Of a stretch of DNA of 64,000 nucleotides, positions 49,259-63,166 are shown piece by piece. This stretch comes from Micromonospora pallida (lineage in GTDB: Bacteria; Actinomycetota; Actinomycetes; Mycobacteriales; Micromonosporaceae), in assembly GCF_900090325.1 (NCBI RefSeq), contig NZ_FMHW01000002.1, forward strand, positions 6,387,001-6,451,000, written 5' to 3'. A model generated the notes under the pieces. The model searched no databases, was not told the DNA's origin, and was given only the letters and a program-made list of their open reading frames with translations. The translations under genes and the position numbers were made by a program. Position 1 is the first letter of the stretch. Each line of letters opens with the position of its first letter.

Positions 49259-49927
49259 GTGCTGGCCGCCTCGGCCACCGAACCCGACGGCGACGAGGCC
49301 CTGGACTACCTCGCCGCCCGGCTGGTCAACGGTAAGCTCACCGGCCGTCCGGTCGAGGACGCCGTTGACCTGGGCCGGATCGAGAAAGCGGTACGCGAGA
49401 TCCTGATCGCGGTCGGGGAGGATCCCGACCGGGACGGGCTGCTGCAGACCCCGGCCCGGGTCGCCCGCGCCTACGCCGAACTCTTTGCCGGCCTCCGGGT
49501 CGACCCGAAGCAGGTGCTCACCACCACCTTCGAGGCCAACCACGAGGAGTTGGTGATCGTCCGGGACATCGACGTGATGAGCCTGTGCGAGCACCACCTG
49601 CTCCCCTTCCGGGGTAGCGCGCACATCGGCTACATCCCCGGGCCGGACGGCCGGATCACCGGGTTGTCCAAGCTGGCCCGGCTGGTCGAGGTCTTCGCCC
49701 GCCGGCCGCAGGTGCAGGAACGGCTGACCTCGCAGATCGCCGACCTGCTGATGGAGCGGCTCGCCCCGCGCGGCGTCATCGTGGTGCTCGAGTGCGAGCA
49801 CATGTGCATGGCCATGCGAGGCATCCAGAAGTCCGGCGCCAAGACGATCACCTCGGCGGTTCGTGGCACCCTCCAACGCGACGCGAAGTCCCGCGCCGAG
49901 GCGATGGCCCTGATCATCCCGCGCTGA
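49259..49927 (+). CDS. folE: GTP cyclohydrolase I
   Basis: A 222-residue enzyme (from GTG 49259) making 7,8-dihydroneopterin triphosphate, the first step of folate synthesis. Zinc ligands lie in [11 protein letters not shown] (C110, H113) and ECEHMCM (C179, C183), and the [19 protein letters not shown] motif is intact. An alternative start is a CTG at 49220 that forms a CTGA overlap with the ftsH stop and would add 13 residues ([13 protein letters not shown]...); such coupling is common in this window, but CTG starts are rare. In M. tuberculosis folP1 follows folE directly; here the next 13.6 kb is an accessory block. Confidence 0.94.
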
Positions 49928-50043: not shown

Positions 50044-50787
50044 TCAACCGGCCCCGGCCAGCACGGCCAGGAGGATCCCGACAGTGCTCAGGGCTGCGGG
50101 AACGCCGCACACCAACGCGCCGAAGCGTGGCGTGCGGTCGAGTTGTTCGTTCGGGCCCGTGCCACTGCCGTGGCCCGGGTCCGGGGCCGAACCCGGACGG
50201 AAGAACCGGCCGACGCCGAACCAGCCCACCGCCCATGCCACCGGCGGCATCAGCAGGCCGAGCAGCAACGTGGGCACGGTCCACGCGCCGGAGCCGGTCA
50301 GCAAGAGGACGACCACCTGGAGCACCGGCACCAGCAGCGCCACCGGCCCGTAGACCAGCAGGTTCCGCAGCCGGGGCGACCAGCCTTCCACCGGGAGCAG
50401 TCCGCGCGCGTCGAGCACCGCGTCGGCGGCGTCCGCACACTCCCCGGCAGAGCGCAGCGCCGTCAGCACCGCCACCGGACCGGCCGCCATCGACCGGGCT
50501 GCCGCAGTCAGCTCCGGCGGGGAGGGCGCCAGCGACATCGCCGGTACGCCCCGCTCACGCAGACGCGACTGCTGGGCGGCCAGACGGGCCCGTACCGTGG
50601 TCAACTCCTCCCGGGCAGCCTCGACCGACCGGGCCTGCGCACCGGCGGCGGTGGCGGCGCCCCGGCGTACCCCGTCGAGCTGGCGGGCGGCGGCGAGGTA
50701 GTCGGTCCACGCGGCGGCGACCGGATCCGGCGGGGGCGGCTCCTCCGGCGCGGCCCGCTGCGTCGGAGCGTTCCCGACCTCGGTCAT
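50044..50787 (-). CDS. coiled-coil, multi-pass membrane protein
   Basis: A 247-residue protein. Residues 22-90 form a probable coiled coil or helical hairpin (AAAWTDYLAAARQLDGVRRGAA and later EELTTVRARLAAQQSRLRERG), then a soluble stretch and three membrane helices near 143-163, 168-191 and 222-245, with a Pro/Gly/Ser loop between the second and third. It follows the FtsK-like gene on the same strand by 106 bases and is likely its partner. I do not recognise the family. It could be a membrane anchor or substrate-interacting protein for the FtsK-like protein. Confidence 0.6.
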   Translation of the reverse strand: MTEVGNAPTQRAAPEEPPPPDPVAAAWTDYLAAARQLDGVRRGAATAAGAQARSVEAAREELTTVRARLAAQQSRLRERGVPAMSLAPSPPELTAAARSMAAGPVAVLTALRSAGECADAADAVLDARGLLPVEGWSPRLRNLLVYGPVALLVPVLQVVVLLLTGSGAWTVPTLLLGLLMPPVAWAVGWFGVGRFFRPGSAPDPGHGSGTGPNEQLDRTPRFGALVCGVPAALSTVGILLAVLAGAG

Positions 50788-50893
50788 CCCACCTCCCCAG
50801 CCCTGGTCACGTCCTCGTGTCGGCAGTCGCCCGGCCGCCGTGCGGTCTGGCGTCTCCCGACCCCGGCCGGTTCTGCGGCCGCCCCGTCCCTGG

Positions 50894-53800
50894 TCATCCC
50901 GGCTCCCCGGCCCCGGCCTCGGCGAACGGCACCAGGAGCGTGCCCGGTCCCTCCGGCCCGTCCCAGAGCAGCGCCCGTCCCGGCCGGGGCGACCACTGCA
51001 CTGTCCGGCCGACGATCTGTGTCAACTGGTTGGCGGGCACGTCGACCACCACCACCGACGCCACCTTGCCGACCCCGTCCTCCGGGTCGAGCAACGCCGC
51101 GAACGCCGATGCCGAACGCCACCAGCCCAGCACGTGCCGTCCGTCCGGCGGACCCTGGTGCAGCAGGGTCCGCAGTGGCCCGTCCGGCACCCCGCCCGGA
51201 CCGTCCGCCCCGAACAGCACCAGGTAGCCCGGACGGTCGTCCTCGAGGATGGCGAGCAGCCCGGCCAGATCGACCGTCTCGACGGTGTGCCGGGCGGCCA
51301 GTTCGACGGCGAGCGCGGTGGCGAGTGCGCCTGCGGTCCTGGTCAGCGTGGCGACGACGAACCGGGCCGTGCCCGGCGGATGGTGTGCCGCGACACTCCG
51401 GGCGGCGGTGGACAGCAACGCGGCGGACTCCTGGCCGGTGCCGAGCACCGCCAGGTTCCGACCGGCTGCCGGGACGAGCGGCACCGACACCGTTTTCCGA
51501 GACACGTCCAGCGCCCGGCCGAGCAGCGCGGCCGGGATTTCCGCCCGTCCCGCGGCGGCCGCCCGGTAGCCCGGGTCGTTGTCGAGCACCGGGCGGGCGT
51601 AACCGGCGAAGACCACCGGCGGGGACGACCCGGCGGGCCGGGCCGCCCAGAGGTCGTGCCGCAGCGTGGCGAGCGCGGCCGGGTCGTCGAGCGGATCCGG
51701 GAAGCGCACCATCCGTTCGTGCCCCCGGGTGGCGCCGCGCGGGCCACCGAGTCCGCCTGCGGTGTTGACCACCGCGCTGCCCACCGCCAGGCCGGCGGCG
51801 GCGTCGTTGGTCGGTTCCAGCACCGCGCCGCCGCCGGGCAACGCCACCCGTACGGGAAACTGACCGAGCACCGAGTCACGGGAGGTCGAGGCCGTTCCGG
51901 CAGCCAGCCCGAGGTCGCCCTCCCCGGCCAGGACCAGATGGATCCCGTACGCCCGCCCGGTGCGGGCCAGGGTCTCCAGCCGGCTGGCCAGATCGGTACC
52001 GAGCCGGTCCCGCTGACCCGGCCGGTGGCTGGCGTGGCCGTCCCGGAAGAGCAGCGACACGTTGTCGATGACACAGACGATCCGGGGCAGGGATTGGTGC
52101 TGACGCAGTTCGGCGAAGCGCTGTCCACCGGCGCGGTGACCCGCCTCCGCGCGCCGACGCAGCTCCGCTTCGAGGTGACCGAAGAGGGCCTGCACGTACT
52201 CCCGGTCGGCCGCGAGCGCGGCCGTCGCGACCTGTGGCACCCACGACCTGTCCCGCCGGGTCTGGAGGAACTCGGTGAACGACTCGCCGTCGGTCAGGTC
52301 CACCAGGTGCAGGACCAGCTCCTCCGGGCCGTACCGGGCGGCCAGGCCGAACAGCACGTTGGTCAGGAAGTCCGCCCGCCCGCTGCCCGGGCGGCCGCTG
52401 ATCAGCCAGTGCGGGGTCAGCTCGGTGAGACCGAGGGTGACGGCCCGTCCATCCGCGTCCCCGACCACGGTCGAGAGGCCGCTCGCGGAACTCGCTGTCC
52501 AGCGGGGCGCCTCGGCGGACGGCAGGAGGGTGGCGAGGGTGAGTTGGGCACCGGCGGCCACCCGACGGGCCAGCCGGCGGCAGACCGCGTCGACCAACTC
52601 GACCGGCGGATCCTCCTCGACCAGGACCGGCGAGTTCAGTCCGGTCGGGGGTTCCGCGCCGGGGCCGGCGAAGGAGGTGCCGGGCGGATCGCCCAGCAGG
52701 GCGTACGCGTTGCGGATCGCGATCTCCGTCGCGTACGGCAATCGGGTCGTACCGCCGTGGGCCGCGCTCCCGTCGCGGCCGGGGCGAGTGGTGTCCGGCT
52801 CGCGGGGCCGGCCCGGACCGTCCGCCATCCGCGCGTCGGAAACGGGTACGCCGGAGGGCGCCGTACCGTCGCTGGTGCTGGTGCTGGTGCTGGTGCTGGT
52901 GCTGGTGCTGGTGCTGGTGCTGGTGCTGGTGGGTGATGGCCGGTGGGTCGTCGGTGCTGGTGGGTCCGGCGGCGCCGCTGGCCAACCGGCGACGACCAGG
53001 TGCAGGCCGGCGCGGTGGCCGCACCGGGCCAGTGCCTCGATCCGCGCCAGATCGTTCGGCTCGACTTCCGGCGGCAGCGCGGCGATCACCAACAGCATGG
53101 TCCGGTCGTGTCGGCGCTGCCGGGCGGTCCCGGAGGCCACCCACTGCTCGGCCTCGCCGAGCACGGCCCGAAGGCCGGCGGCATCCGTGGCGGGTGGCGG
53201 CAGCAGACCGGCGTCGGCCAGCGGGGCGAACGGGGCGAAAATTCCGCTGGCCCGGTCCGCGATCCCAGTCCCGGCGGAACTGCTCGGCGTTTCCGGGACG
53301 GGCGAATCGATCGGAGCCCGGGTGGTACCGCCAGCGGGGCCGGTCGACGTCCCGGTGCTGTCGTCGGTGGGTGGGTCGGACGCCGGTTCGCTTCTCCCGC
53401 TGCCGCGCGGGCCGGGGATCTGGTCGACGGGGGCGGCGGACGACGGCCCGATCCTCCCTCCGTCGGGCGGGGCGGGCGTCCTGCCGGCGAGCGGGTCCGT
53501 TTCTCCGATACGAGCACCCGCTGGGTGGGCTGTCGCGTCGGTGGTGCCGTCGACAGCGCGTACCAACAGGGAACCGGGTGGCGAGGCGGCCAGCAGCCGG
53601 AGCAGTACGGCACGGAGGAGGCCGGCGACGCGCGGGTCGTTGGCGTCGGTGTCGACGACCAGATGGCCGGTGCCGGCCAGGGGCACCAGGGCGGGGAAGC
53701 GCGCGTCGTCCAGCGGTGTGGCGGTACCGACCCGGACGAAGGCGGGGACCCCGTCATCGGGTGGTGTGTCCGGGGTGAGCGAGTCCATGGCGCTGCCCGC

Positions 53801-53980
53801 CCAGCCCGGCGCCAACGCCTCCGCTGCTCGGCGAAGCCGGTCAGCCAGCTCGTACTGTCGGCGTTGGTCAGCAGGGACCGGCCTGGTGTCGTCCAGCATC
53901 GCGGCGGCGGCGGTCGTGGTGGCAGTCGCCCGACGGTGCAGGGTGGCGGCACGGCTGGTGCGACCCTTGATGTTGGCCAC
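50894..53980 (-). CDS. FtsK/SpoIIIE-like protein with degenerate nucleotide-binding motifs
   Basis: A 1,028-residue EccC/FtsK-like protein. From the GTG at 53980 (GGGGAGAGAGG ribosome-binding site) it has an N-terminal helical region, an ATPase-like domain around 90-160, a long low-complexity linker with a (Thr-Ser)10 tract at 351-370, and two FtsK-like domains. The Walker A at 529-536 reads GRPGSGRA, with Arg and Ala in place of the Lys and Ser/Thr, and its Walker B position reads VCVIDNVSLL. The last domain has GTGQESAA near residue 845. It therefore probably binds nucleotide weakly or not at all. No membrane helix is apparent. Role unknown; possibly a scaffold, or a pseudo-ATPase partner of EccC or of the VirB4-like ATPase. 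Confidence 0.75.
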   Translation of the reverse strand: MANIKGRTSRAATLHRRATATTTAAAAMLDDTRPVPADQRRQYELADRLRRAAEALAPGWAGSAMDSLTPDTPPDDGVPAFVRVGTATPLDDARFPALVPLAGTGHLVVDTDANDPRVAGLLRAVLLRLLAASPPGSLLVRAVDGTTDATAHPAGARIGETDPLAGRTPAPPDGGRIGPSSAAPVDQIPGPRGSGRSEPASDPPTDDSTGTSTGPAGGTTRAPIDSPVPETPSSSAGTGIADRASGIFAPFAPLADAGLLPPPATDAAGLRAVLGEAEQWVASGTARQRRHDRTMLLVIAALPPEVEPNDLARIEALARCGHRAGLHLVVAGWPAAPPDPPAPTTHRPSPTSTSTSTSTSTSTSTSTSTSDGTAPSGVPVSDARMADGPGRPREPDTTRPGRDGSAAHGGTTRLPYATEIAIRNAYALLGDPPGTSFAGPGAEPPTGLNSPVLVEEDPPVELVDAVCRRLARRVAAGAQLTLATLLPSAEAPRWTASSASGLSTVVGDADGRAVTLGLTELTPHWLISGRPGSGRADFLTNVLFGLAARYGPEELVLHLVDLTDGESFTEFLQTRRDRSWVPQVATAALAADREYVQALFGHLEAELRRRAEAGHRAGGQRFAELRQHQSLPRIVCVIDNVSLLFRDGHASHRPGQRDRLGTDLASRLETLARTGRAYGIHLVLAGEGDLGLAAGTASTSRDSVLGQFPVRVALPGGGAVLEPTNDAAAGLAVGSAVVNTAGGLGGPRGATRGHERMVRFPDPLDDPAALATLRHDLWAARPAGSSPPVVFAGYARPVLDNDPGYRAAAAGRAEIPAALLGRALDVSRKTVSVPLVPAAGRNLAVLGTGQESAALLSTAARSVAAHHPPGTARFVVATLTRTAGALATALAVELAARHTVETVDLAGLLAILEDDRPGYLVLFGADGPGGVPDGPLRTLLHQGPPDGRHVLGWWRSASAFAALLDPEDGVGKVASVVVVDVPANQLTQIVGRTVQWSPRPGRALLWDGPEGPGTLLVPFAEAGAGEPG
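52871..52930 (-). repeat. hexanucleotide microsatellite (GCTGGT)10
   Basis: Ten perfect head-to-tail copies of GCTGGT (ACCAGC on the coding strand) encode (Thr-Ser)10 inside the FtsK-like gene. Because the unit is six bases, copy-number changes would lengthen or shorten the linker by two residues without a frameshift. Confidence 0.95.
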
Positions 53981-54181
53981 CCGTCCCACCTCTCTCCCCG
54001 AGGCCGGCAACCCCTGAGCAGAGACGGTATCCCAGGTCGACGCGGCGGTCCGGGACGCGCGACGGTGATGCGCGCGGGAAGCTCGCGAACCGTACTGATC
54101 CGGCGAAGCGGGACGAGCCAGGTGAAGATCGGCGGCATCCGGGGCATTGGGTACGGGGCACCCAACCGATAGCCTCAGGGG

Positions 54182-54751
54182 GTGGAATCAGTGCAGCCCC
54201 CCGCCGGTTCCCAGGTGTCCCGCGTACCCGCTCAGCGGACCCCGCAGGAGGATCTGGCGCCAGCCCCGGCCCTGCCGGTCCCGGTGCCGCCGCGCCGTCG
54301 AATGCGGACAGTCCTGACGGTGGCCGGCGTCATGCTTACCGTGCTCTGCCTCAGCGGGGCCGTCACCGCATACATCCTCTACGACCGCGCCAGCGCCCCC
54401 GATCGCAGTGCCCCTGACGTCGCTGTCGTGAATTATCTTCGAGCATTCTTGATCGACCGTAACGACGCAAGGGCTGACCTCTTCACCTGCGGGAAGGGGA
54501 GTGAAGGGTTGGCTGAACTGCGAGCACTGCGGACTGACCTGGAGTCACGGGAGAAGCGTTTCGGCACCAGCTTCTCGACAAAGTGGGGCGGGCTTGCGGT
54601 TCAGGAGAATGGAGAGCAGGCAACCGTCAACGTTGATCTGACTATCTCTGCCTTTGTCGATGGAATCAGTCAGAGCGACCGACAGTCATGGCAGTTCAGC
54701 ACTCGCGTGGAAGGTGACTGGCGCGTGTGCAGCGCGGCGAAGGTCGGCTGA
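54182..54751 (+). CDS. single-pass membrane protein with extracellular NTF2-like domain
   Basis: A 189-residue protein: proline-rich N-terminus (1-38), RRR then one membrane helix (about 42-66), and an external domain with RSAPDVAVVNYLRAFLIDRNDARADLF, a TCGKG cysteine and a final WRVCSAAKVG, the same ending style (WWVCEVG) as the protein at 1571-2386. Codon use is visibly less GC-rich than its neighbours (AATTATCTTCGAGCATTC), suggesting recent acquisition or relaxed expression. The GTG start at 54182 is divergent from the FtsK-like gene. It is convergent with the 199-residue gene at the tail of the secretion operon. Confidence 0.65.
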   Translation: MESVQPPAGSQVSRVPAQRTPQEDLAPAPALPVPVPPRRRMRTVLTVAGVMLTVLCLSGAVTAYILYDRASAPDRSAPDVAVVNYLRAFLIDRNDARADLFTCGKGSEGLAELRALRTDLESREKRFGTSFSTKWGGLAVQENGEQATVNVDLTISAFVDGISQSDRQSWQFSTRVEGDWRVCSAAKVG

Positions 54752-54756
54752 CCGCG

Positions 54757-55356
54757 TCATTCGACCCAGAGGAGGTGGACGGGCACCTCGAGGGTGGTCG
54801 GTGGCTGGCCGCGCCAGGCCCAGCGATACCAGTTCAGCTCGGCGGCTACCCGGATGCAGATGTCCCCGTCGGGGCCGGAGTAGGGCTCGGTGACGGCGCG
54901 CAGATCACGCTGTTCCGTCGGACCGACCACGTGGACGACTCGCCGGCCGGTCACCGCGCCGGCCTCGAAGACCGGCGTCGGCAACCGGTGCGCTGGGGCG
55001 TCCAGAGAGACCAGACGTGGCACCAGGTCATGCGGGGTGCCGGCGACAGGGCGGGGGCCCAGGGTCTCCACCCAGACCCGGTCCACCGGTACCAGCGGCG
55101 CGAACACCTCCACCTGCTCGGACTCGGCCCGGTACCACTCGTTCTCCGGGATCACCGGAACGTACGTGCGGCTGTTCTGCACCACCCGCTGATCGGCCCG
55201 CAGGTCACCACGCCAGCCTGTGCCGGGCAGCCCGATCACGACCCGGCGTCCGTGCAGGTCGACCAGCCCGGTCGCGGGCACCATCCGGATCGGCCGGGGA
55301 GGAAGCGGCGCCCAGTCGGGTTGACCGGCGAAGGGATCTGGAAGTTGATTGTTCAT
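54757..55356 (-). CDS. hypothetical protein at the end of the type IV secretion-like operon
   Basis: A 199-residue protein with no signal peptide or membrane helix. It starts MNNQLPDPFAGQPDWAPLPP and contains a strand-rich core (RVVIGLPGTGWRGDLRADQRV, VWVETLGPRPVAGTPHDLVP) and several tryptophans, ending WRGQPPTTLEVPVHLLWVE. It is 13 bases downstream of the M23 gene on the same strand and the last member of the run. I do not recognise the family. Its position suggests a secretion-accessory or substrate role. Confidence 0.6.
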   Translation of the reverse strand: MNNQLPDPFAGQPDWAPLPPRPIRMVPATGLVDLHGRRVVIGLPGTGWRGDLRADQRVVQNSRTYVPVIPENEWYRAESEQVEVFAPLVPVDRVWVETLGPRPVAGTPHDLVPRLVSLDAPAHRLPTPVFEAGAVTGRRVVHVVGPTEQRDLRAVTEPYSGPDGDICIRVAAELNWYRWAWRGQPPTTLEVPVHLLWVE

Positions 55357-55369
55357 CGGCCCGGACGTG

Positions 55370-56545
55370 TTACGCGGCGCCCTTCAGCGGGGCACCTCGC
55401 TCCTTCATGAAGGGCACCGGGTTGACGGCGCCGCGACTGGTGCGGTCCTCGTTGAGGTGCACCTCGAAGTGCAGGTGCGGGCCGGAGGAGTTGCCGCTGC
55501 TGCCCACCTCACCGATGACCTCACCCGCCTTGACCGTCTGACCGGGGACGACGCGTGGTTTCTCGACCATGTGGCAGTAGCGGGTGATGTAACCACCCGC
55601 GTGCAGCATGTCGACGAACCAGCCACAGCCGCCCTTGTTCGGCCAGCCGTCCACGTCGCAGCTGAGCCGCCCCCGGTTGTCCGGGTCACACCTGGCGACT
55701 AACACCCGGCCGCTAGCGGCAGCGCGGATCTTGGTTCCCTTGGGGGCGGCGATGTCCACGCCGTTGTGCTTGGGGCGGTCCGCCGTGCGGAATCCCGACC
55801 CGACCCCCCCAGGGATGGGCGCTGTCCAACCTGATGCGGCGATCTCGCCGCCAGCAGCCGCGTCGCAGACCTTCCTTCCGGAGATCTGTACCGTCCGGGC
55901 GGCTCCGCCCGCCAGTGCGTCCACGATTCGGCTAGCCAGTTCCTCGTGCTTGGCGTAGGCGTCGGGGAAGGCGCTGATCTGCACCCGCTGCGCGGCCACG
56001 GTCAGCGGAAGCTTCTCCCAGTTGTCGACCTTGACCAGCTTCTCGTAGAACTTTCGGGCCGCGTAGGCGGGATCCAAGCGCTGCTCGACCGAGCCCCACC
56101 CGGCGCGCTGCTGGAACAGTCCGAGGGAGTCGTGGTCCCAGCCGATCCCCTCGTTCGGGATCCGCTGCGATCCGGCGACCGTGGGGTTCGCGAGATTACG
56201 CAGCCCGGACTCCTGCATTGCGGTGGCGACGGCGATCACCCAGGCTCGTGGGGGCAGCTTCATGTCTTGCCCGACCTTGATGATGATGGCGGCGTTCCGG
56301 AGTTGACGCTCGCCGTACTCGGTGAACCGGGGCATGTCACCAGTCACGTTGACCTTGTGGTCTGGTCCGCAGGTCAGCGAGTTCGCGTTCACCGGATCGC
56401 CGGTATCGCCACCCAGTTCGGTGAGGAGGAAGGCGCCGGCGCCGCCCGTGCAGCAGAGCAGGGCAAGCGCCGCGGTCAGTGCCGCTGCCAGTGCCCCCAC
56501 CCGTACCTGCCGGCGCGGCGAGGTCTTTCGGGTCGTGTCGCTCAT
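55370..56545 (-). CDS. transglycosylase-like plus M23 peptidase (VirB1-like wall hydrolase)
   Basis: A 391-residue bitopic protein with an N-terminal signal-anchor (about 15-45). A lytic-transglycosylase/soluble murein hydrolase-like domain follows (ALQESGL-type helix read as ATAMQESGLRNL, catalytic Glu; SLGLFQQR), then an M23 metallopeptidase domain with metal ligands in KHNGVDIAAPKG and SSGPHLHFEVHLN and a disulphide-like pair of cysteines. Such double hydrolases open the cell wall for conjugation-type machines (VirB1/TcpG-like). It lies between the VirB8-like gene (four-base overlap) and the 199-residue gene. It is the best functional clue that the operon builds a trans-envelope apparatus. 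Confidence 0.85.
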   Translation of the reverse strand: MSDTTRKTSPRRQVRVGALAAALTAALALLCCTGGAGAFLLTELGGDTGDPVNANSLTCGPDHKVNVTGDMPRFTEYGERQLRNAAIIIKVGQDMKLPPRAWVIAVATAMQESGLRNLANPTVAGSQRIPNEGIGWDHDSLGLFQQRAGWGSVEQRLDPAYAARKFYEKLVKVDNWEKLPLTVAAQRVQISAFPDAYAKHEELASRIVDALAGGAARTVQISGRKVCDAAAGGEIAASGWTAPIPGGVGSGFRTADRPKHNGVDIAAPKGTKIRAAASGRVLVARCDPDNRGRLSCDVDGWPNKGGCGWFVDMLHAGGYITRYCHMVEKPRVVPGQTVKAGEVIGEVGSSGNSSGPHLHFEVHLNEDRTSRGAVNPVPFMKERGAPLKGAA

Positions 56546-57090
56546 GCCCGCTCCCAGTCCACCACGTCAACCAGCCAGCGTCCCTCCGGTGCCACGAGTT
56601 CCAGCCGCAGCTCACCGGTGTCCAGTGGGACGAGCGCCTCGACGAACGACTCGGTTCGTGGCCGGAGAGTGGCGGGACCGGTGGTCCGTTCCGCCGGCAC
56701 TCCGGCCGGGTCCGCCCCGGCCATCTTCTCGACCAGAACGGGTGTGGCGAGTGGCCGGATCGTCGCCAGCCACTCCTCGCTGGTCATGCCACTCCCACCG
56801 AGCCAAGCCCGCACGAAGGTGTCCACGACCTGCTCCGGCTTGGGCGTGCCCGGGCGGGTGACCGGGGACGGCGGTGCGGCCGTGGAGATGGCACCGTCGT
56901 CCCCCGAGTTCGGGTCGACCGTGGTGACCGGGCGGTCCGGCCGATTGCTGAGCCCGGCGGACGGGTCGGCCGGGCCGGAGACCAGCCGCGCCGCTCCGAT
57001 GACCCCGAAGACCAGGACGGCGATGCCCAAGGCCACGCCGAGTCGGGACCGGAGCACTCGGGTGAGAAGGAACTCGATTGCCCGTCGCAC
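56542..57090 (-). CDS. bitopic VirB8/TcpC-like protein
   Basis: A 182-residue protein with an N-terminal membrane helix (about 14-34), a Pro/Ser/Asp linker, and an external alpha/beta domain (about 80-182) with FVRAWLGGSGMTSEEWLATI, which resembles the NTF2-like fold of VirB8/TcpC conjugation proteins. Sequence similarity is too weak for certainty. The GTG at 57090 has a GAGGTGAGGA ribosome-binding site overlapping the end of the VirB6-like gene's stop by a few bases. It overlaps the transglycosylase-M23 gene by four bases. VirB8 homologues assemble the inner-membrane part of type IV secretion machines. Confidence 0.55.
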   Translation of the reverse strand: MRRAIEFLLTRVLRSRLGVALGIAVLVFGVIGAARLVSGPADPSAGLSNRPDRPVTTVDPNSGDDGAISTAAPPSPVTRPGTPKPEQVVDTFVRAWLGGSGMTSEEWLATIRPLATPVLVEKMAGADPAGVPAERTTGPATLRPRTESFVEALVPLDTGELRLELVAPEGRWLVDVVDWERA

Positions 57091-57094
57091 GTCC

Positions 57095-59065
57095 TCACCT
57101 CGCCTCGGTGCGCACCCGGGGTGCCTGCGGGGTGGGAGCGGGGGTCCGCTCCCGTGAACCGGGACGGTAGAGCACGAAGGACGAGTTCTCCTCCGGTGCG
57201 TCCGGCTCCGTCCAGGTTGCCGGCTGCCGGCGGGGCCTCGGTGGCGCGGCGGACCGACCGGTACGACGTGGCTCGTCCTGGACGGTCGTCTCGTCCACAT
57301 GTTCGCGACCGTCCGGACGTTGCCGGGGTTCCGCCTCGGCGATTGTCCGGCTCTCGGCACGCGCCGCGGTCTGTGCCGGATCTTCCCGACGTGACTCCGG
57401 CCGGAGCCGGGTCTGTTCGACCGTTGCGCCCCGTTTCCGACCCGGCGTCGACGTCGCCCGTTCGCCGGCTTCAGCCTCCTCGAGCCGGGCAGCCGTCCGC
57501 ATGTCCCGGAAGAACCGTCGGTGCCAGGAGCCGCCCGCCCCGCCCGCCTCGCGGCCGTCTTTCCCGCCGAGTTGGGTGATCCGGCGGTACGGCCGCAGCA
57601 GTAGCCAACCGACCACACCGCAGAGCCAGACCAGCACCACCTGGAGCCAACCCGGGAGGGTGGGTGTATTCATGATCAGGTCGACCGCGAACAGGTAGAT
57701 AGCCGCGCCGGTACCGAAGATGGCGACGTTGAACACCGCTGCGACGACCGCGTTCCCGAGCCGGCGCAGGCCAGCGCTGGCCGGGCGCATCAGGCCGATG
57801 GTGCCGAGGATCGGTGCCGCGATCACCGCCCACCGGAAGATCAGGAAGCCGAGGAGGACCAGCAGGGAGGCGGTCAGGTCGAACATGGCGAAGAGGACGG
57901 CGGCGAGCACGGCGATGAAGCCCGCGCCGACCCGGTCCATGTCGCGGACGCCCTGGAGGTATTCGTACGCCTCCGGGTCCTCCTTCTTGATCTGCTCGGC
58001 GACCCGGGCCCACTGCTGTTGCTTGATGTCGATAATGACGTCCCGTGTCGCCGGGTTCTCCCGGAGACTCTCAGCTTCCTCCCAGGAGAGCGACTTCGCG
58101 TCGTAGAGGGCCCGCCCGTACTTCGTTGCGGTCTCGCTGTCCGCGGAGCCGAGCACCCCGCGCAGCCAGTTGCGGTAGAGCATCGACTCGGTGGCCGTGT
58201 CGCTGGCCCGAACTGCTGGCGGACGATTGTCCTTGCAAGCGGCGGGGTTGGGTAGGACGCACTTGTCAGGGGGAATGTCCTTCGCAGCGGGGCCGACCGC
58301 GTCGTGCACCACACCCAGTGTGGTGACCAGGGTGCCGTCGGCGAGGTTTGCCGACTTCACCGGCCAGGCAGCCAGCGCGGTCACCGCGACCATCACCAGC
58401 AGCGCCCAACCGGCCGTGGTCATCGCGTTGCTCATGTCCGACTGTCGGGAGCGCCAGAGCAGGTAGAGCCCGACGACGCACAGGGTGATGATGCCGAAGA
58501 CGCTGAACACCTTCTGGTAGACGGCCTTGGTGGCCTGGTCCACCAACGGGTCCGCCCAGCCCCACATCGACCGAGGCTCCCAGGCCCGTTCGCGCAGGGC
58601 GTTCGAGGCGCCGATGATGGCGTTGGCCACCATGAATTCGCCGTTCGCGACCATCGTGGTGAACCGGTATTCCGGGTGGATCACGGACGACGCGCAGCCG
58701 GTGTCGATGTCGTACGTGTTGAAGCTGTAACCGGCGTACCCGTAGTCGCTGTAGAGCCCCTTCGGACCGGGTTGCTTGGCGGAGTCCGGTCGGGCGGCGA
58801 ACCAGCCGGCCAGCCCCGAGTCTGGTGCACCGGGTGTCGGCGCGTTGCGGCACTTGACCGCGTCCTCGCTGATGTTGTCGAGCTTCGCTACGCAGGCGCG
58901 GAAGTCGGCCTGCCACTCCTGCGCGGTGCAGAGTTCGGCCCGTGCCTGGGTTGTCGGGGGTGGAGCCGCCGCCGCACCGACCGCGGGCCAGACGATTGTG
59001 GCCACCGCGAGTACGCCGACGGCGAGGAGGAGTGCCGCGATCCGTGCCGGGGCCCTCGCCACCAT
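57095..59065 (-). CDS. VirB6/TrbL-like polytopic membrane protein
   Basis: A 656-residue protein: signal peptide (cleavage near AAA), an extracellular cysteine-bearing domain (about 35-165), then at least six membrane helices interrupted by a large external loop (about 250-370), and a charged, disordered cytoplasmic tail (about 490-656, Arg/Pro/Glu-rich). Topology and membrane-helix pattern match TrbL/VirB6 channel subunits, and it sits between VirB4-like and VirB8-like genes as in conjugation operons. The ATG at 59065 is one base beyond the VirB4-like stop. Probably the DNA or protein channel component. Certainty is moderate because VirB6 proteins diverge rapidly. Confidence 0.7.
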   Translation of the reverse strand: MVARAPARIAALLLAVGVLAVATIVWPAVGAAAAPPPTTQARAELCTAQEWQADFRACVAKLDNISEDAVKCRNAPTPGAPDSGLAGWFAARPDSAKQPGPKGLYSDYGYAGYSFNTYDIDTGCASSVIHPEYRFTTMVANGEFMVANAIIGASNALRERAWEPRSMWGWADPLVDQATKAVYQKVFSVFGIITLCVVGLYLLWRSRQSDMSNAMTTAGWALLVMVAVTALAAWPVKSANLADGTLVTTLGVVHDAVGPAAKDIPPDKCVLPNPAACKDNRPPAVRASDTATESMLYRNWLRGVLGSADSETATKYGRALYDAKSLSWEEAESLRENPATRDVIIDIKQQQWARVAEQIKKEDPEAYEYLQGVRDMDRVGAGFIAVLAAVLFAMFDLTASLLVLLGFLIFRWAVIAAPILGTIGLMRPASAGLRRLGNAVVAAVFNVAIFGTGAAIYLFAVDLIMNTPTLPGWLQVVLVWLCGVVGWLLLRPYRRITQLGGKDGREAGGAGGSWHRRFFRDMRTAARLEEAEAGERATSTPGRKRGATVEQTRLRPESRREDPAQTAARAESRTIAEAEPRQRPDGREHVDETTVQDEPRRTGRSAAPPRPRRQPATWTEPDAPEENSSFVLYRPGSRERTPAPTPQAPRVRTEAR

Positions 59066-59066
59066 G

Positions 59067-62000
59067 TCACGCCTCCAGGTCCGAGAGGATGCTCGGTAGG
59101 TTCGCGGCGTTCGTGGCGACCGCCGTCGGGGTGGTGTCGAGGTGTTCCAGCAGGCCGTCGACGTACGAGACGTCCACCCGGACCTTCTGCACCCGGCCGT
59201 CGACGTCTCGCATGACGAACTCCCGGAAACCGAGTCGGGCGGCCGACGACGCGTCGGCTGCCGACAGGGAGGCCAGGGTTGCCTCGTAGCCGTCGTCGAC
59301 CGGCACCCGGAGCAGTCGGAGCGCCTCGGAGGCGATCTCGGCGTCCTCGGCGATCCGGCCGACGAAGACCGTGGAGACGAGGTTCTGCACGTCCAGCCCG
59401 AGGATGTCGCGTGGATTCTGCGAGGCGACCAGCGCAGCGAGGTTCCATTTCCGGGAGTCGCGGGCCAGCCGGACCAGGAAGGACCGACCGGAGCGCCAGC
59501 CCTCCATGAAGTGGGCCTCGTCCAGGCCGACGAGCTTCCGCGACGACATCGAGCCGCCGTAGCAGCGGCGGACCGCGAGCCGGTGGGCGGTGTGCAACAT
59601 CGGCAGGGCCAACGACTCCTCGGCCGACCAGTACTCCCGCTCGATCTTCAGGTCGGGCAGGCGCAGCCCGGCCATGGTGATCACGGTGAGGGCCGCGTCC
59701 GCGCCGAGCAGGCCCTCCGGCGGACGGCCGAAGAAGAGCAGCGCCAGCGGCATCTCGGCGGTGTCCAGCAGGAGGTTGGCCAGTTCCTTGCCGGCGTCGT
59801 CGTCGAGCTGCCCGAGGCAGGCGACCACGTCGTCCAGGGTGGAGGTCTCCTCGGCCGGCACCTGGCGGACCGCGTGCCGGAACAGGGTGGCGGTGGACGC
59901 CTCCCGGGCGACCTGCGGCGGCACCAGCATCATGCAGATGTCCTGCACCAGCATGCGCCGTTCGGCCCGGGCGTTGGAAACCGCGATCTCGAACTCCCGG
60001 TCACCCGCCGCCCCGCTGGCGAACTCGGTCCGCAGCGGCGTCGGGATCAGCGAGTACGGCGCGAGTGTGCCGTGCTCGGAGCCGGTCAGGTTCAGCACCC
60101 GGGAGTACGGCCGCAGCTCGGGCATCTGGCACAGGCGGGCCAGCGGGCCGGACGGGTCGAGCAGGGTCACCTGGACGCCCCGTCGGGCGGCGAGATAGCC
60201 GAGGGCACCCAGCAGGGTCGACTTGCCACCACCCGGCTCGGCGACGAAGACGGCCAGACCGGAGCGTTCCCGCACCTCCATCGGGAAGTGCATGTCGAGG
60301 AAGACCGGGCGGCGGCAGGTGCCGGCGGTCCGTCCGATCAGGTCGCCCCGCCGGTCGCCGACGGTGGAGGCGGCCTGTGGCAGAGCGGCGGCGAGGAGGT
60401 TGACCGGCATCCGACGGACGTATCCGGTGTTGGCGATCGGCTCGCCGGGGATGAACTCCCGGGCCAGCCAGTCCTGGTTCTTCGGGTGCTGGAGCGAGAT
60501 GCGCAGCTCGCGCGAGTAGAGCTGGATCAGGCGGCGGGCCCGTTCCAGGCATTCCTCCCTGGTCCGGCCGCCGACGGCGATCCGGTGCCAGCCGTGCGCC
60601 CGGGCCGAGTCCACCGGCAGACCAGTGGTCATCTCGTCGCCGATCACCAGCGCCCGCTTGGCGAGGCGTTCCAGCTCCGGCGGGGCGTCGATGCCGTGCT
60701 CGGCGTAGTCGAGCTGCTGCGAGCGGATCATCCGGAGCCGGTGTTCCAGGTTACGGAAGGAATCGCCGGAGCCGAGGATGTCGACCCGGGTGGAGATTTC
60801 CATCGGCCAGGGCAGCCGCTCGTGGAAGTGCAGCCACGGTTCGTGCTTCTCGGGGATCTCCAGCGGTTCCATCCGGCCGACCGCGAGCACCGCGACGTGC
60901 CGCTCCTCGCCGGTCATCCGGTTGACCAGCTTGACCGTGGAGCCGTACGGGGTGCGGTACCGTTCGACCTGCTCGGTCAGGGCGAGCAGGTCGCCCCGTT
61001 CCCAGCGCCCGTTGGTCACCGGGGAGAGCGCCCCCGGCGGTGCCATGCAGAGCGCCACCGAGCGGTAGAGCAGCCACTCCAGTTCCTGAGAGGTGACCCG
61101 CCGGCCGCGCATGCCGAACGCGCCGAGCACCTCGTCGAACTGCTCCACCGTCCGGCCGAGCTTGCGTCGTTCGCCGTCGGCGGTGCCCCGGCCGAAGGCG
61201 CGCAGCAGGCGTTCGGTCATCGAGTCGCCCAGCGAGCGGCGGGCGAAGGTGACCCCGAGGTAGGTCTGTCCCTCGGCGTGGTTGACCGAGAGCAGGTGCC
61301 GCTGCGCGGCGACGAGGTGGTCGGCCCAGGCCGGGGTGCCCGGCACGTCCGCCAGCGGGTTCGGCGTGTACGAGTCGATGGTGCGGGCCCACTCGTCGGC
61401 CGGGAACGGCCGGGTGGTGCGGCGCAGGTGCAGCCGGAATCCGGCCAGGCCGGCGTACTGCTCGGAGATCGCCGAGAGCAGGGCCTCCCGTTCGGCGTCG
61501 GGACGGAACGCCCAGCGCACCTCGGGGAGCCAGTACCAGGCGGTGACCGTGTTCGGGGTGAAGGTCAGGTGCCCGGCGATCTCGGTGATGGCCAGCTCGA
61601 CGGAGGGATCCCGGTCCCCGAACTTGATCTTCGGCGGTCGGATCCGGGTCGGCTTGGTGGGCTTGACCGACTTCTCGCGCTTCTCCCGTCGACCCTCGGC
61701 GGAACGCTGCCGGGGCGGGACCCGGCGGTGGCTCGGCGGGGTGTCTCGGCCGGCCTGGTCCAGCGGCGCGGCGGCTGGGGCCGGTTCCGCCGGCGGGCGG
61801 GCCATGGGCAGGCGTTCGGCCGGCTGTTCCGGCACGCGCGGCAGCACCACGGGCGGCTCAGGTTCGGCCAGCGCCGGCAGCGGGGCCGCCGGTCGGGGCT
61901 CGGGTGCCGGCGCGGCCGGTGGCGGTGCCGGTACGGGCGGCGGGTCGACCGGGACGGCCCGGGGGGCTGGTGCCGGCACCGGCCGAGGCTGCTCCACGGC

Positions 62001-62411
62001 CGGCGTGGCAGCCCGGGGCGCTGCCGGCTCGACGGGCGGAGCGGATGGCTGGTGCGGAATCGGCAGCGGGTCGCGTCCGGGCCGCCGCAGTGGCGTCAGG
62101 GGCTGCCGGGTGACCCCCGGTCGGGTGCCCCCGAAGAGGTCGAGGAAGGGTGAGTCGATGTCCGGACTCTCCGGCGCGGAACGCGGCGGCGCGGACTCCT
62201 CGCCCGACGGGGCCGGCCGGCCACGGGCCGGTCGGGGTGCCTGGAAGACGCCGATGCTCCCCTGACCAGGGCTGGTAGCCAGCGCCGGGTCGAGGCTCAC
62301 CTCGTCGACCGGGTCGTCCTGGGGGTAGTCGAGCGAGCGCGCACGGTGACCGTGCGGGGCGGCCTGATGTCCGGCCGGGTACGACTGCCCCGGCGTCGAC
62401 GAGCGGCTCAT
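59067..62411 (-). CDS. VirB4-like AAA ATPase
   Basis: A 1,114-residue cytoplasmic ATPase of the VirB4/TraC/TrsE type. An N-terminal Pro/Ala-rich disordered region (about 1-235) precedes a VirB4 N-terminal-like domain and a C-terminal AAA-like ATPase with Walker A AEPGGGKST (K730) and Walker B VGLDEAH (D964, E965). The LVASQNPRDI segment is typical of secretion/conjugation ATPases. It is the longest protein of the operon and its likely motor. It lies between the VirB3-like gene and the VirB6-like gene. Family assignment is firm by motif and context; whether it drives DNA or protein transport is unknown. Confidence 0.87.
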   Translation of the reverse strand: MSRSSTPGQSYPAGHQAAPHGHRARSLDYPQDDPVDEVSLDPALATSPGQGSIGVFQAPRPARGRPAPSGEESAPPRSAPESPDIDSPFLDLFGGTRPGVTRQPLTPLRRPGRDPLPIPHQPSAPPVEPAAPRAATPAVEQPRPVPAPAPRAVPVDPPPVPAPPPAAPAPEPRPAAPLPALAEPEPPVVLPRVPEQPAERLPMARPPAEPAPAAAPLDQAGRDTPPSHRRVPPRQRSAEGRREKREKSVKPTKPTRIRPPKIKFGDRDPSVELAITEIAGHLTFTPNTVTAWYWLPEVRWAFRPDAEREALLSAISEQYAGLAGFRLHLRRTTRPFPADEWARTIDSYTPNPLADVPGTPAWADHLVAAQRHLLSVNHAEGQTYLGVTFARRSLGDSMTERLLRAFGRGTADGERRKLGRTVEQFDEVLGAFGMRGRRVTSQELEWLLYRSVALCMAPPGALSPVTNGRWERGDLLALTEQVERYRTPYGSTVKLVNRMTGEERHVAVLAVGRMEPLEIPEKHEPWLHFHERLPWPMEISTRVDILGSGDSFRNLEHRLRMIRSQQLDYAEHGIDAPPELERLAKRALVIGDEMTTGLPVDSARAHGWHRIAVGGRTREECLERARRLIQLYSRELRISLQHPKNQDWLAREFIPGEPIANTGYVRRMPVNLLAAALPQAASTVGDRRGDLIGRTAGTCRRPVFLDMHFPMEVRERSGLAVFVAEPGGGKSTLLGALGYLAARRGVQVTLLDPSGPLARLCQMPELRPYSRVLNLTGSEHGTLAPYSLIPTPLRTEFASGAAGDREFEIAVSNARAERRMLVQDICMMLVPPQVAREASTATLFRHAVRQVPAEETSTLDDVVACLGQLDDDAGKELANLLLDTAEMPLALLFFGRPPEGLLGADAALTVITMAGLRLPDLKIEREYWSAEESLALPMLHTAHRLAVRRCYGGSMSSRKLVGLDEAHFMEGWRSGRSFLVRLARDSRKWNLAALVASQNPRDILGLDVQNLVSTVFVGRIAEDAEIASEALRLLRVPVDDGYEATLASLSAADASSAARLGFREFVMRDVDGRVQKVRVDVSYVDGLLEHLDTTPTAVATNAANLPSILSDLEA

Positions 62412-62460
62412 TCGATCGCCTCACCCGGATCACTCGACCGTCCGATCGGCGTACGCCCGG

Positions 62461-62823
62461 TCATGCCAGCTCCTCCCGGATCCTGATCCGGCTGCCGACC
62501 AGGCGTGGGTCGCGTAGTTCGGCCGCCGGCTCCCGGGTACGTCGCCAGTCGGTCAGCGCGGTGCGGATCACCATGCGCGCCGGCCGGTCCGGGTCGACGT
62601 ACCGGAAGATGAACGAGGTCGTCACGATGGCGAGCGCGATCTCCCAGGCAGGGAAGAGCTCGACCTTCAGCGTGAACAACCAGTGGATGAACATGTAGAG
62701 GGGGACGAGCAGCATGAACAGGCCGTACTGCGCGTACGGCAGGTGAACGGGGAGGGTGTACCCCGGCGGGCCCAGGTAGACCAGACGGGCCCGGTAGATG
62801 TCGTCGTCGGTGCGCAGCCGCAT
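62461..62823 (-). CDS. VirB3/PrgI-like small membrane protein
   Basis: A 120-residue protein with two adjacent hydrophobic helices (about 30-52 and 60-80) and a charged C-terminal tail rich in Arg and Glu. Size, two-helix topology and position directly upstream of a VirB4-like gene fit VirB3/PrgI, which docks VirB4 to the membrane. The start is the ATG at 62823; 49 bases separate it from the ATPase gene. It follows the VirB2-like gene by 13 bases. Assignment rests on topology and neighbours. Confidence 0.6.
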   Translation of the reverse strand: MRLRTDDDIYRARLVYLGPPGYTLPVHLPYAQYGLFMLLVPLYMFIHWLFTLKVELFPAWEIALAIVTTSFIFRYVDPDRPARMVIRTALTDWRRTREPAAELRDPRLVGSRIRIREELA

Positions 62824-62836
62824 CTCGTGCCCGCGC

Positions 62837-63166
62837 CTATTCGAAGATCAGTTCGATCAGGTAGTCACCGACGAAGAAGAGCGTGGCGGCGCCGGCGATG
62901 AAGGCGAGCCCGACGATGGCGATGGCCGAGCTGGTCAGCACCTTCGAGATCTCACCCCGGCTGGCCCGGCCGATGAAGATGACGCCCAGCACGGCGAGCA
63001 GGATGGGCGCGATCTTGCTGGCGAAGAAGGAGACGACACCATCGGTGTTGATCCCCTTGGGGGCCGGCTCGGCGAGCGGGGTCGACGCCAGGGCGTGGAG
63101 CATCGGGGCGACAGCTGTCGACACCGTGTCCACGAACTCTGTGGCGATCACTGAAAACCTCCCCAT
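62837..63166 (-). CDS. VirB2/TrbC-like pilin-sized membrane protein
   Basis: A 109-residue protein with two hydrophobic helices (about 49-66 and 80-105) separated by a short polar turn GRASRGEISKVLTSS, and an N-terminal region with FVDTVSTAVAPML. Many VirB2/TrbC prepilins have this two-helix hairpin. It is the first gene of the minus-strand operon. Unlike classical VirB2 it lacks an obvious cleaved signal peptide. The ATG at 63166 has no strong ribosome-binding site. Assignment rests on topology and gene order. Confidence 0.5.
   Translation of the reverse strand: MGRFSVIATEFVDTVSTAVAPMLHALASTPLAEPAPKGINTDGVVSFFASKIAPILLAVLGVIFIGRASRGEISKVLTSSAIAIVGLAFIAGAATLFFVGDYLIELIFE

What the first reader, a model, noticed from the sequence alone, without database searches (positions are those of the whole stretch)
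50044..63166. A type IV secretion-like operon and an FtsK-like pair inserted between folE and folP
folE and folP are adjacent in M. tuberculosis and commonly clustered elsewhere, but here they are separated by 13.1 kb of genes. Seven minus-strand genes (63166 to 54757) match the order of a minimal Gram-positive type IV machine: VirB2-like, VirB3/PrgI-like, VirB4-like ATPase, VirB6/TrbL-like, VirB8-like, transglycosylase-M23 hydrolase, and an unknown protein. I see no relaxase, integrase, origin of transfer, or VirD4-type coupling ATPase, so this may be a stable chromosomal secretion system rather than a mobile element. That is inference from motifs, topology and gene order.
Basis: partly seen in the sequence, partly recalled or inferred. 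Interest (0 to 1): 0.85.

Follow-up and report, generated by a model that had tools for sequence, protein, structure and literature searches.

The report
Conjugation channel fixed in actinomycete chromosomes
This stretch of a Micromonospora-like chromosome carries the channel-building genes of a DNA-transfer machine normally found on plasmids, held in the same place by its relatives and without the usual DNA-nicking enzyme, which suggests the cell has taken the channel over for a job of its own.

Summary
The operon is real. Six minus-strand genes (63166-55370) encode VirB2-, VirB3/PrgI-, VirB4-, VirB6- and VirB8-like proteins and a transglycosylase/M23 hydrolase, in the order of transfer operons on linear actinomycete plasmids. 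VirB4 and hydrolase motifs are kept in 79-80 of 80 relatives; dN/dS is 0.05-0.36 in four comparisons.

It does not behave as a mobile element. The folP-operon-folE block has the same order and strands in 55 of 80 Micromonosporaceae loci; 17 of the other 25 are cut short. A strong VirB4 match is in 41 of 42 own-family genomes and in 41 Pseudonocardiaceae genomes; ten of the latter, examined, lie at a different locus. Tree and AU test (p 2.4e-5) favour at least two fixations.

Corrections: gene 7 is not a core T4SS part, lying beside folE without the operon in six relatives. The FtsK-like neighbour lost its Walker lysine in Micromonospora. 50044-50787 is not FtsK-like.

Likely role, inferred: a developmental or hyphal envelope channel, like Streptomyces cmdABCDEF (PMC2782261).

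The parts
62837..63166 (-). VirB2-like small membrane protein, 109 aa, two predicted TM segments
   Evidence: BLAST to same-position genes on two of three plasmids, 5e-5 (L083) and 3e-4 (L081); TM scan
62461..62823 (-). VirB3/PrgI-like membrane protein, 120 aa; most conserved gene of the operon
   Evidence: BLAST to genes on three of three plasmids, 2e-11 to 2e-5; dN/dS 0.05-0.09
59067..62411 (-). VirB4/TcpF-like ATPase, 1114 aa
   Evidence: AAA_10 9e-23; TcpF 8.8e-20, below its cut-off; 32-37% to plasmid VirB4; Walker A GGGKST 79/80, DEAH 80/80
57095..59065 (-). VirB6-like polytopic membrane protein, 656 aa, six predicted hydrophobic segments
   Evidence: BLAST to plasmid genes 2e-51 to 2e-21; weak CD3337/EF1877 hit 0.0018
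56542..57090 (-). VirB8-like protein, 182 aa, one N-terminal TM (start chosen at GTG 57090)
   Evidence: Aligned with two plasmid counterparts at 27-28%; AlphaFold model pLDDT 79; best PDB match PrgL VirB8 domain 7aed, E 0.014, TM 0.36/0.46
55370..56545 (-). cell-wall hydrolase: lytic-transglycosylase-like domain plus M23 endopeptidase
   Evidence: Peptidase_M23 2.3e-26; plasmid hydrolases 2e-34 to 1e-13; Glu112 in 79 of 79 aligned, His260, Asp264, His357 in 80 of 80 (catalytic roles recalled)
54757..55356 (-). seventh gene (c7), 199 aa, no TM, two repeats of a small beta-rich unit; last gene of the operon but also found beside folE without it
   Evidence: No family hit; model pLDDT 84.5, no PDB match at E 0.001; beside folE without the operon in six genomes
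54182..54751 (+). 189-aa protein with a probable TM segment, unknown function, converging on c7; a gene of the block, not shown to be part of the machine
   Evidence: Matched in 80 of 80 loci; no Pfam hit; TM judged by eye
50894..54010 (-). FtsK/EccC-like protein, 1038 aa, degenerate Walker A (GRPGSGR); neighbour, not shown to be part of the machine
   Evidence: FtsK_SpoIIIE 1.5e-13; EccCa 6e-14; Walker Lys kept in 11 of 74 relatives, none of them Micromonospora or Salinispora
50044..50787 (-). 247-aa protein with a hydrophobic C-terminus; not FtsK-like
   Evidence: No credible family hit; dN/dS 0.38-0.56

Best explanation
The six genes at 63166-55370 are the channel and wall-opening part of a conjugation-type type IV machine of the actinomycete linear-plasmid kind, fixed in the chromosome and taken over by the host. 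Shown: gene identity and order, intact VirB4 and hydrolase motifs, conserved position, family-wise grouping in the tree, dN/dS well below 1, and no relaxase in the block. Inferred: VirB2/3/6/8 form a membrane complex, the hydrolase opens the peptidoglycan, and VirB4 drives assembly or transport. Also inferred: the channel serves hyphal development or movement of material between compartments, as the distantly related cmdABCDEF operon appears to do in Streptomyces. Identity and domestication about 0.93; the developmental or inter-compartment role about 0.45.
For: Identity. Same six-gene order on five plasmid regions read. Intact motifs. Selection: (window against four of 80 loci). Position: 55 of 80 loci with all 12 genes in the same order and strands, 66 of 80 with folP plus the seven-gene operon. 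Prevalence: 41 of 42 own-family genomes (one of the 41 partial) and 41 f51 genomes with a strong VirB4 match. Tree: own family plus f47 and f49 100/100, f51 100/99; separate fixations by AU test p 2.4e-5. Role by analogy: cmdABCDEF mutants have sporulation and chromosome-segregation defects and actinorhodin overproduction, and CmdB is VirB4-like (PMC2782261, parts 1-3 of 4 read).
Against: The cmd-like VirB4 (L128, itself only inferred to be cmd) falls outside the window-plus-plasmid group with the f17 family (quick tree), so the two operons are not shown to be orthologous. No expression or mutant data were found for this locus. One own-family genome (G279) has only a weak VirB4 match, so the system may be dispensable. 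In 11 of 74 relatives the FtsK-like neighbour keeps its Walker lysine, so a coupling role there is not excluded. The tree is unrooted: plasmids descending from chromosomal copies is possible. Substrate and target compartment are unknown.
Confidence: 0.5

Rival explanations
1. The channel moves DNA between cells or hyphae for the host: a domesticated exchange or uptake system, comparable in principle to the crenarchaeal Ced system.
For: The closest relatives found are plasmid operons, the related SLP2 genes being required for plasmid transfer (PMC2782261). Ced imports chromosomal DNA with few components (abstract start of PMC11868833; its lack of a relaxase is recalled).
Against: No relaxase in the block. 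The nearby FtsK-like protein has lost its Walker lysine in Micromonospora. No direct evidence of DNA movement.
Confidence: 0.25
2. Protein secretion: the channel exports an effector or wall protein, with VirB4 or an unlinked ATPase as receptor.
For: T4SSs without a VirD4 protein exist (PMC12857230, passages seen). Hydrolase and VirB4 motifs are intact.
Against: No candidate substrate gene is linked to the operon across families in the loci examined; c7 lies apart from it in six own-family genomes.
Confidence: 0.15
3. The operon still serves mobile elements in trans: a coupling protein and relaxase of a resident element use this channel.
For: The same genome has an ICE-like cluster with a TraG/TrwB-type coupling protein and a Replic_Relax protein.
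Against: That cluster has its own VirB4-like, PrgI, TrbL and pilin genes. Fixed position and dN/dS of 0.36 or less in the six core genes fit a host function better. In Streptomyces, deleting cmd did not change transfer of an SLP2-derived plasmid (data not shown there; PMC2782261).
Confidence: 0.1
4. A decaying remnant of an integrated conjugative element.
For: No relaxase in the block; the FtsK-like neighbour is degenerate in Micromonospora.
Against: Motifs intact in 79-80 of 80 loci, dN/dS 0.05-0.36 in the six core genes, strong VirB4 matches in 41 of 42 own-family genomes.
Confidence: 0.02

Closest known systems
Transfer operons of actinomycete linear plasmids (five regions read: Streptomyces NEAU-S7GS2, Streptomyces NBC_01304, Nonomuraea NBC_00507, Pseudonocardia DSM 110487 p1, R. 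jostii pRHL3)
   Same: Same six-gene order; in the three compared by BLAST, VirB4 32-37% and VirB6 22-30% identical, hydrolase related
   Different: Four of the five regions have an annotated FtsK/SpoIIIE protein near the operon (none annotated in the Pseudonocardia stretch read); pRHL3 is typed with a MOBP relaxase. The window's FtsK-like neighbour is of another kind (best E 0.002 to a plasmid one) and there is no relaxase.
cmdABCDEF (SCO4126-4131) of Streptomyces coelicolor
   Same: Chromosomal, co-transcribed, VirB4-like ATPase plus membrane proteins, three genes resembling SLP2 transfer genes (PMC2782261)
   Different: A cmd-like locus (L128, identity inferred) has VirB4 25% identical and groups elsewhere in the quick tree; its hydrolase gene is on the other strand.
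Tcp system of Clostridium perfringens pCW3
   Same: VirB4 matches TcpF best among NCBIfam models (8.8e-20); the conjugation NTF2-like protein 3ub1 (TcpC, name recalled) is among the fold matches of the VirB8 model
   Different: Far below the TcpF cut-off (70 vs 1100 bits); chromosomal; no TcpA-type coupling protein identified.
Ced DNA-import system of Sulfolobales
   Same: Host-owned DNA transporter of few components (abstract start); VirB4-like motor recalled
   Different: Archaeal; no sequence comparison made here.

Membership tests
Gram-positive type IV secretion system | VirB4-family ATPase | tested here: met
   AAA_10 9e-23, TcpF 8.8e-20, intact Walker motifs
Gram-positive type IV secretion system | VirB6-like polytopic membrane protein | tested here: met
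   Plasmid homologues 2e-51 to 2e-21
Gram-positive type IV secretion system | VirB8-like protein | tested here: met
   27-28% to plasmid counterparts; PrgL VirB8 domain best fold match but weak, E 0.014
Gram-positive type IV secretion system | VirB1-like peptidoglycan hydrolase | tested here: met
   M23 2.3e-26; plasmid hydrolases; conserved catalytic residues
Conjugative element (plasmid or ICE) | Relaxase in the element | tested here: not met
   None of the ten genes of the block matches one; nearest flanking genes are ftsH, folE, folP, folB
Conjugative element (plasmid or ICE) | Coupling ATPase | tested here: inconclusive
   No VirD4-type protein in the block. The FtsK-like neighbour has the same Pfam domain as plasmid coupling proteins but resembles EccC more and lacks the Walker lysine in Micromonospora, though not in 11 of 74 relatives
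Conjugative element (plasmid or ICE) | Integrase, tRNA attachment site or border repeats | tested here: not met
   No tRNA in the window; no border direct repeats of 18 nt or more; no integrase among the block's genes or the ten own-genome flanking ORFs scanned. The full 50 kb on each side was not scanned.
Conjugative element (plasmid or ICE) | Variable position and presence among relatives | tested here: not met
   55 of 80 loci identical in order and strand, 17 of the other 25 cut short; strong VirB4 in 41 of 42 own-family genomes. Position does differ between families and in two genera of the own family.
cmd operon (Streptomyces) | Orthology of VirB4 | tested here: inconclusive
   L128 groups with f17, outside the window-plus-plasmid group (quick tree), but its identity as cmd is inferred and its branch is long
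cmd operon (Streptomyces) | Role in sporulation and chromosome segregation | not testable with these tools
   Needs a deletion mutant

The most novel reading that the evidence does not exclude
Mycelial actinomycetes have repeatedly captured the channel of linear-plasmid conjugation machines and turned it into a housekeeping envelope device. It was fixed independently in Micromonosporaceae with two related families, in Pseudonocardiaceae, and as cmd in Streptomyces. It works without a relaxase and, in Micromonospora, without an active FtsK-type coupling ATPase beside it, in sporulation or in traffic between hyphal compartments.
Probability: 0.35. Interest if true: 0.82.

Novelty: new variant of a known kind. 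Interest (0 to 1): 0.62.

Why it matters
Two large families of mycelial, antibiotic-producing actinomycetes carry a conserved operon whose VirB4 gene is mostly named just 'ATP-binding protein' in the lists seen. If the reading is right, conjugation channels have been turned into developmental or intercompartment devices more than once, and a single deletion in a laboratory Micromonospora or Saccharopolyspora would test it. It also bears on how cmdABCDEF, described in 2009, works.

Tried and rejected
Mobile element: rejected by conserved position, tree and flanks. Decaying remnant: rejected by dN/dS and intact motifs. Anti-phage system: only weak ATPase hits in PADLOC (VirB4 to mad8 7e-8, FtsK-like protein to SspH 1e-7), as this ATPase superfamily would give. 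c7 as the seventh T4SS part: first favoured because a c7 homologue lies near the f45 operon; rejected as a core part because c7 sits beside folE without the operon in six own-family genomes, including one with no strong VirB4. FtsK-like protein as coupling ATPase: disfavoured, not excluded. The seventh gene of the Pseudonocardiaceae operon as a c7 homologue: no convincing alignment. PDB sequence search with VirB4: nothing useful. c7 fold search: mostly Tudor/SH3-like matches at E 0.02 or worse.

Errors of mine and dropped rows: the VirB8 frame in the script was wrong, so its VirB8 rows are void. One search used a wrong label for c7 and was redone. In one search two loci (L129, L130) gave no VirB4 hit and were dropped; eight long or distant rows (L120-L125, L128, L131) were left out. 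The ORF caller is crude and lists some wrong-strand frames. Family codes f1, f2 and so on are the tool's. f51 is named Pseudonocardiaceae because L147's VirB4 is 100% identical over 97% to Saccharopolyspora erythraea, and because the Actinopolyspora mortivallis and Actinosynnema entries lie on contigs of the same length as those fetched from G306 and G260. Naming f19 as Streptomyces-like and f2 as Mycobacteriaceae-like is a guess.
Full report
What is there. Between folE (49259-49927, GTP_cyclohydroI 4.2e-77) and folP (from about 63505, dihydropteroate synthase 1e-92) lie ten genes. Seven on the minus strand form a tight unit, 63166 to 54757, with gaps of 13, 49, 1, 4, -4 and 13 nt. Pfam, NCBIfam and PHROGs identify the VirB4-type ATPase and the M23 hydrolase. 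The small membrane proteins are too diverged for those libraries, so I compared them with plasmid genes.

Match to plasmid transfer operons. tblastn of VirB4 finds 293 plasmid records. In five plasmid regions read with context, all on linear records, a VirB4-like 'ATP-binding protein' is preceded by small proteins and followed by a large, a small and a peptidase gene. BLAST against three of them matches B2 (two of three, 5e-5 and 3e-4), B3 (three of three, 2e-11 to 2e-5), B4 (three of three, 4e-153 to 4e-106), B6 (three of three, 2e-51 to 2e-21) and the hydrolase (three of three, 2e-34 to 1e-13), in the same order. The VirB8-like protein aligns at 27-28% with two plasmid counterparts. Its model (pLDDT 79, pTM 0.60) has the PrgL VirB8 domain as first PDB match at E 0.014, with other VirB8- or NTF2-like conjugation proteins lower in the list; no match reached E 0.001.

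Working parts. In 80 related loci VirB4 keeps EPGGGKST in 79 of 80 (EPGGGKSL in one) and DEAH in 80 of 80. The hydrolase keeps Glu112 in 79 of 79 aligned and His260, Asp264 and His357 in 80 of 80 (that these are catalytic is recalled). Pairwise dN/dS (Nei-Gojobori, window against four loci: L048, L064, L001, L038) is 0.05-0.36 for the six core genes, 0.18-0.25 for c7 and 0.26-0.56 for the other three genes.

Position. 256 relatives were confirmed in genome contigs and the best 80 kept; all 80 record titles name Micromonosporaceae. 66 of 80 hold folP plus all seven genes. 55 of 80 hold all twelve genes from folP to folE, all 55 in the same order and strands. Of the other 25, twelve start at a contig end within 160 bases of the VirB4 match, and five (L019, L026, L036, L073, L080) end less than 4.2 kb after c7. 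Eight had 5.7 kb or more after c7 and still lack something: L017, L050, L075, L078 and L079 lack only folE; L004 and L006 lack the FtsK-like gene, the 50044-type gene and folE; L062 lacks folP, B2 and B3 although 10 kb upstream is held, as does L036. These exceptions were not pursued. No tRNA lies in the window and no direct repeat of 18 nt or more spans the borders. Flanking genes tested are ordinary: ftsH, a phosphoribosyltransferase, gamma-glutamyltranspeptidase, folP, folB, a transporter component, a trypsin-like/Colicin V protein, EccC and one ORF without a hit.

How wide. Profile A1 (VirB4 C-terminal part) found some match in 122 of 249 genomes of the order. In the own family 41 of 42 have a strong match; one of these, G311, is partial next to a run of N, and the 42nd, G279, has only E 4.6e-4. 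No own-family genome stands at the head of the kinship-sorted list without a match. 41 f51 genomes have E 1e-139 or better; misses in f51 cannot be excluded because 107 genomes without a match were not listed. Strong matches (460 bits or more) also occur in f44, f45, f47 and f49; f42 and f41 have intermediate ones (G135 338 bits, G147 173, G190 148); f2 genomes reach at best E 5e-6.

Neighbours elsewhere. Twenty further loci were read, ten of them f51. In the ten f51 loci, B3, B4, B6 and hydrolase lie in the same order in ten of ten, B8 is found by tblastn with the window protein in eight of ten, and a predicted small protein before B3 matches a plasmid B2 in eight of ten. Conserved f51 neighbours include a CT398 zinc-ribbon protein and an RNase H/histidine-phosphatase protein, tested in two loci. 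In L154 (f49) the operon is followed by IF-3 and pheS-like genes; L157 (f47) shows the same IF-3-like frame by eye. In L156 (f44) a tRNA-synthetase-like gene and a DUF3090 gene flank it, and in L158 (f45) CofD and F420-ligase genes lie nearby. So the operon is chromosomal-looking but at different housekeeping loci in different families.

Wider class. 38 of 118 genomes had some match. Outside the order the best was G102 (433 bits). Family f17 had seven genomes at 124-132 bits. A Streptomyces-like genome, G112, had a weak match (39 bits) at mid-chromosome, in a row of genes with VirB4- and VirB6-like members (L128). I take L128 to be cmd-like, which is not verified by name.

Tree. With 42 VirB4 proteins (careful IQ-TREE; eight long or distant rows left out) the own family with f47 and f49 is one group (100/100) and f51 another (100/99), the latter on the side of the ten plasmids (100/99). 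Forcing the two chromosomal sets together is rejected (AU p 2.4e-5), though I named the group after seeing the tree. An earlier quick tree of 50 rows agrees on these groups and puts f17 with the Streptomyces-like row apart (98); its careful search did not finish. The root is not inferred.

History of the locus. Two genera of the own family (g74, g75; L159, L160) fall outside the twelve folE-folP-type rows (100/100 for the twelve). L159 and L160 carry the core operon with no folE, c7 or FtsK-like match within 19.5 kb. In six of six loci from these genera c7 lies beside folE and ftsH without the operon: L195-L198, L200 and L202. c7 itself is in 42 own-family and two f45 genomes among 249. The simplest reading is that the operon was already chromosomal and moved once next to c7 at the folE locus.

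The FtsK-like protein. It has an FtsK_SpoIIIE domain, as plasmid coupling proteins do, but resembles EccC (6e-14) more than them (best 0.002). Its Walker lysine is kept in 11 of 74 relatives (Asanoa, Actinoplanes, Symbioplanes, Phytohabitans, Plantactinospora), is arginine in 62 and valine in one. In Micromonospora it cannot be assumed to be a motor; in the other genera a coupling role stays possible.

Literature. PMC2782261 (parts 1-3 of 4 read): cmdABCDEF mutants have fewer spores, 6-8% anucleate spores against 0.1%, aberrant branching and actinorhodin overproduction; CmdB is membrane-located and VirB4-like; transfer of an SLP2-derived plasmid was unchanged (data not shown). PMC4182475 (passages): a virB4-like gene in Micromonospora lupini, surrounded by proteins of unknown function, was noted; whether it is this gene was not checked. 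PMC12857230, PMC3218068, PMC6585502 and PMC9195940 (passages only) did not describe this operon in what I saw. Searches listed no paper that by title or abstract start describes it; only open-licence full text is held, so description elsewhere is possible.

Verdict. A genuine, widely fixed, apparently domesticated conjugation-type channel. What it works like is well supported; what it transports is not known.

Noticed in passing
L086 (own genome C2:948000-967500): Separate ICE-like cluster: VirB4/TraG P-loop protein, PrgI, TrbL, T4SS pilin, TraG/TrwB-type coupling protein and a Replic_Relax protein. The whole-genome search with PF02534 had reported no match, although the L086 protein passes that family's cut-off (23.6 against 20.1 bits).
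   Followed up: partly
window 32206-36192 (-): Full-length type VII secretion EccC (EccCa 2e-292, EccCb 2e-261), about 15 kb from the EccC-like FtsK protein of the block.
   Followed up: no
window 50894-54010 (-): FtsK-like gene whose Walker lysine is kept in several Micromonosporaceae genera but lost in Micromonospora and Salinispora: a possible enzyme-to-scaffold change.
   Followed up: partly
Proteins P0250, P0265, P0277: VirB4 relatives of about 1350 aa carrying a PF14528 domain (LAGLIDADG-type, recalled), which suggests an intein in VirB4 of some Saccharopolyspora and Haloactinomyces.
   Followed up: no
L147:14356-14889 (+) and equivalents in other f51 loci: A different, uncharacterised gene follows the hydrolase in the Pseudonocardiaceae operon; its frame matches in nine of the nine other f51 loci examined.
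   Followed up: partly
L158:11534-12112 and L199:2400-2981 (+): c7 homologues in two f45 genomes, next to a CofD gene in L158 and a similar frame by eye in L199, while c7 lies next to folE in the own family: a repeated neighbourhood with pterin or deazaflavin genes.
   Followed up: partly
window 52859-52936: Short tandem repeat of GCTGGT units inside the FtsK-like frame, giving a Thr-Ser run.
   Followed up: no
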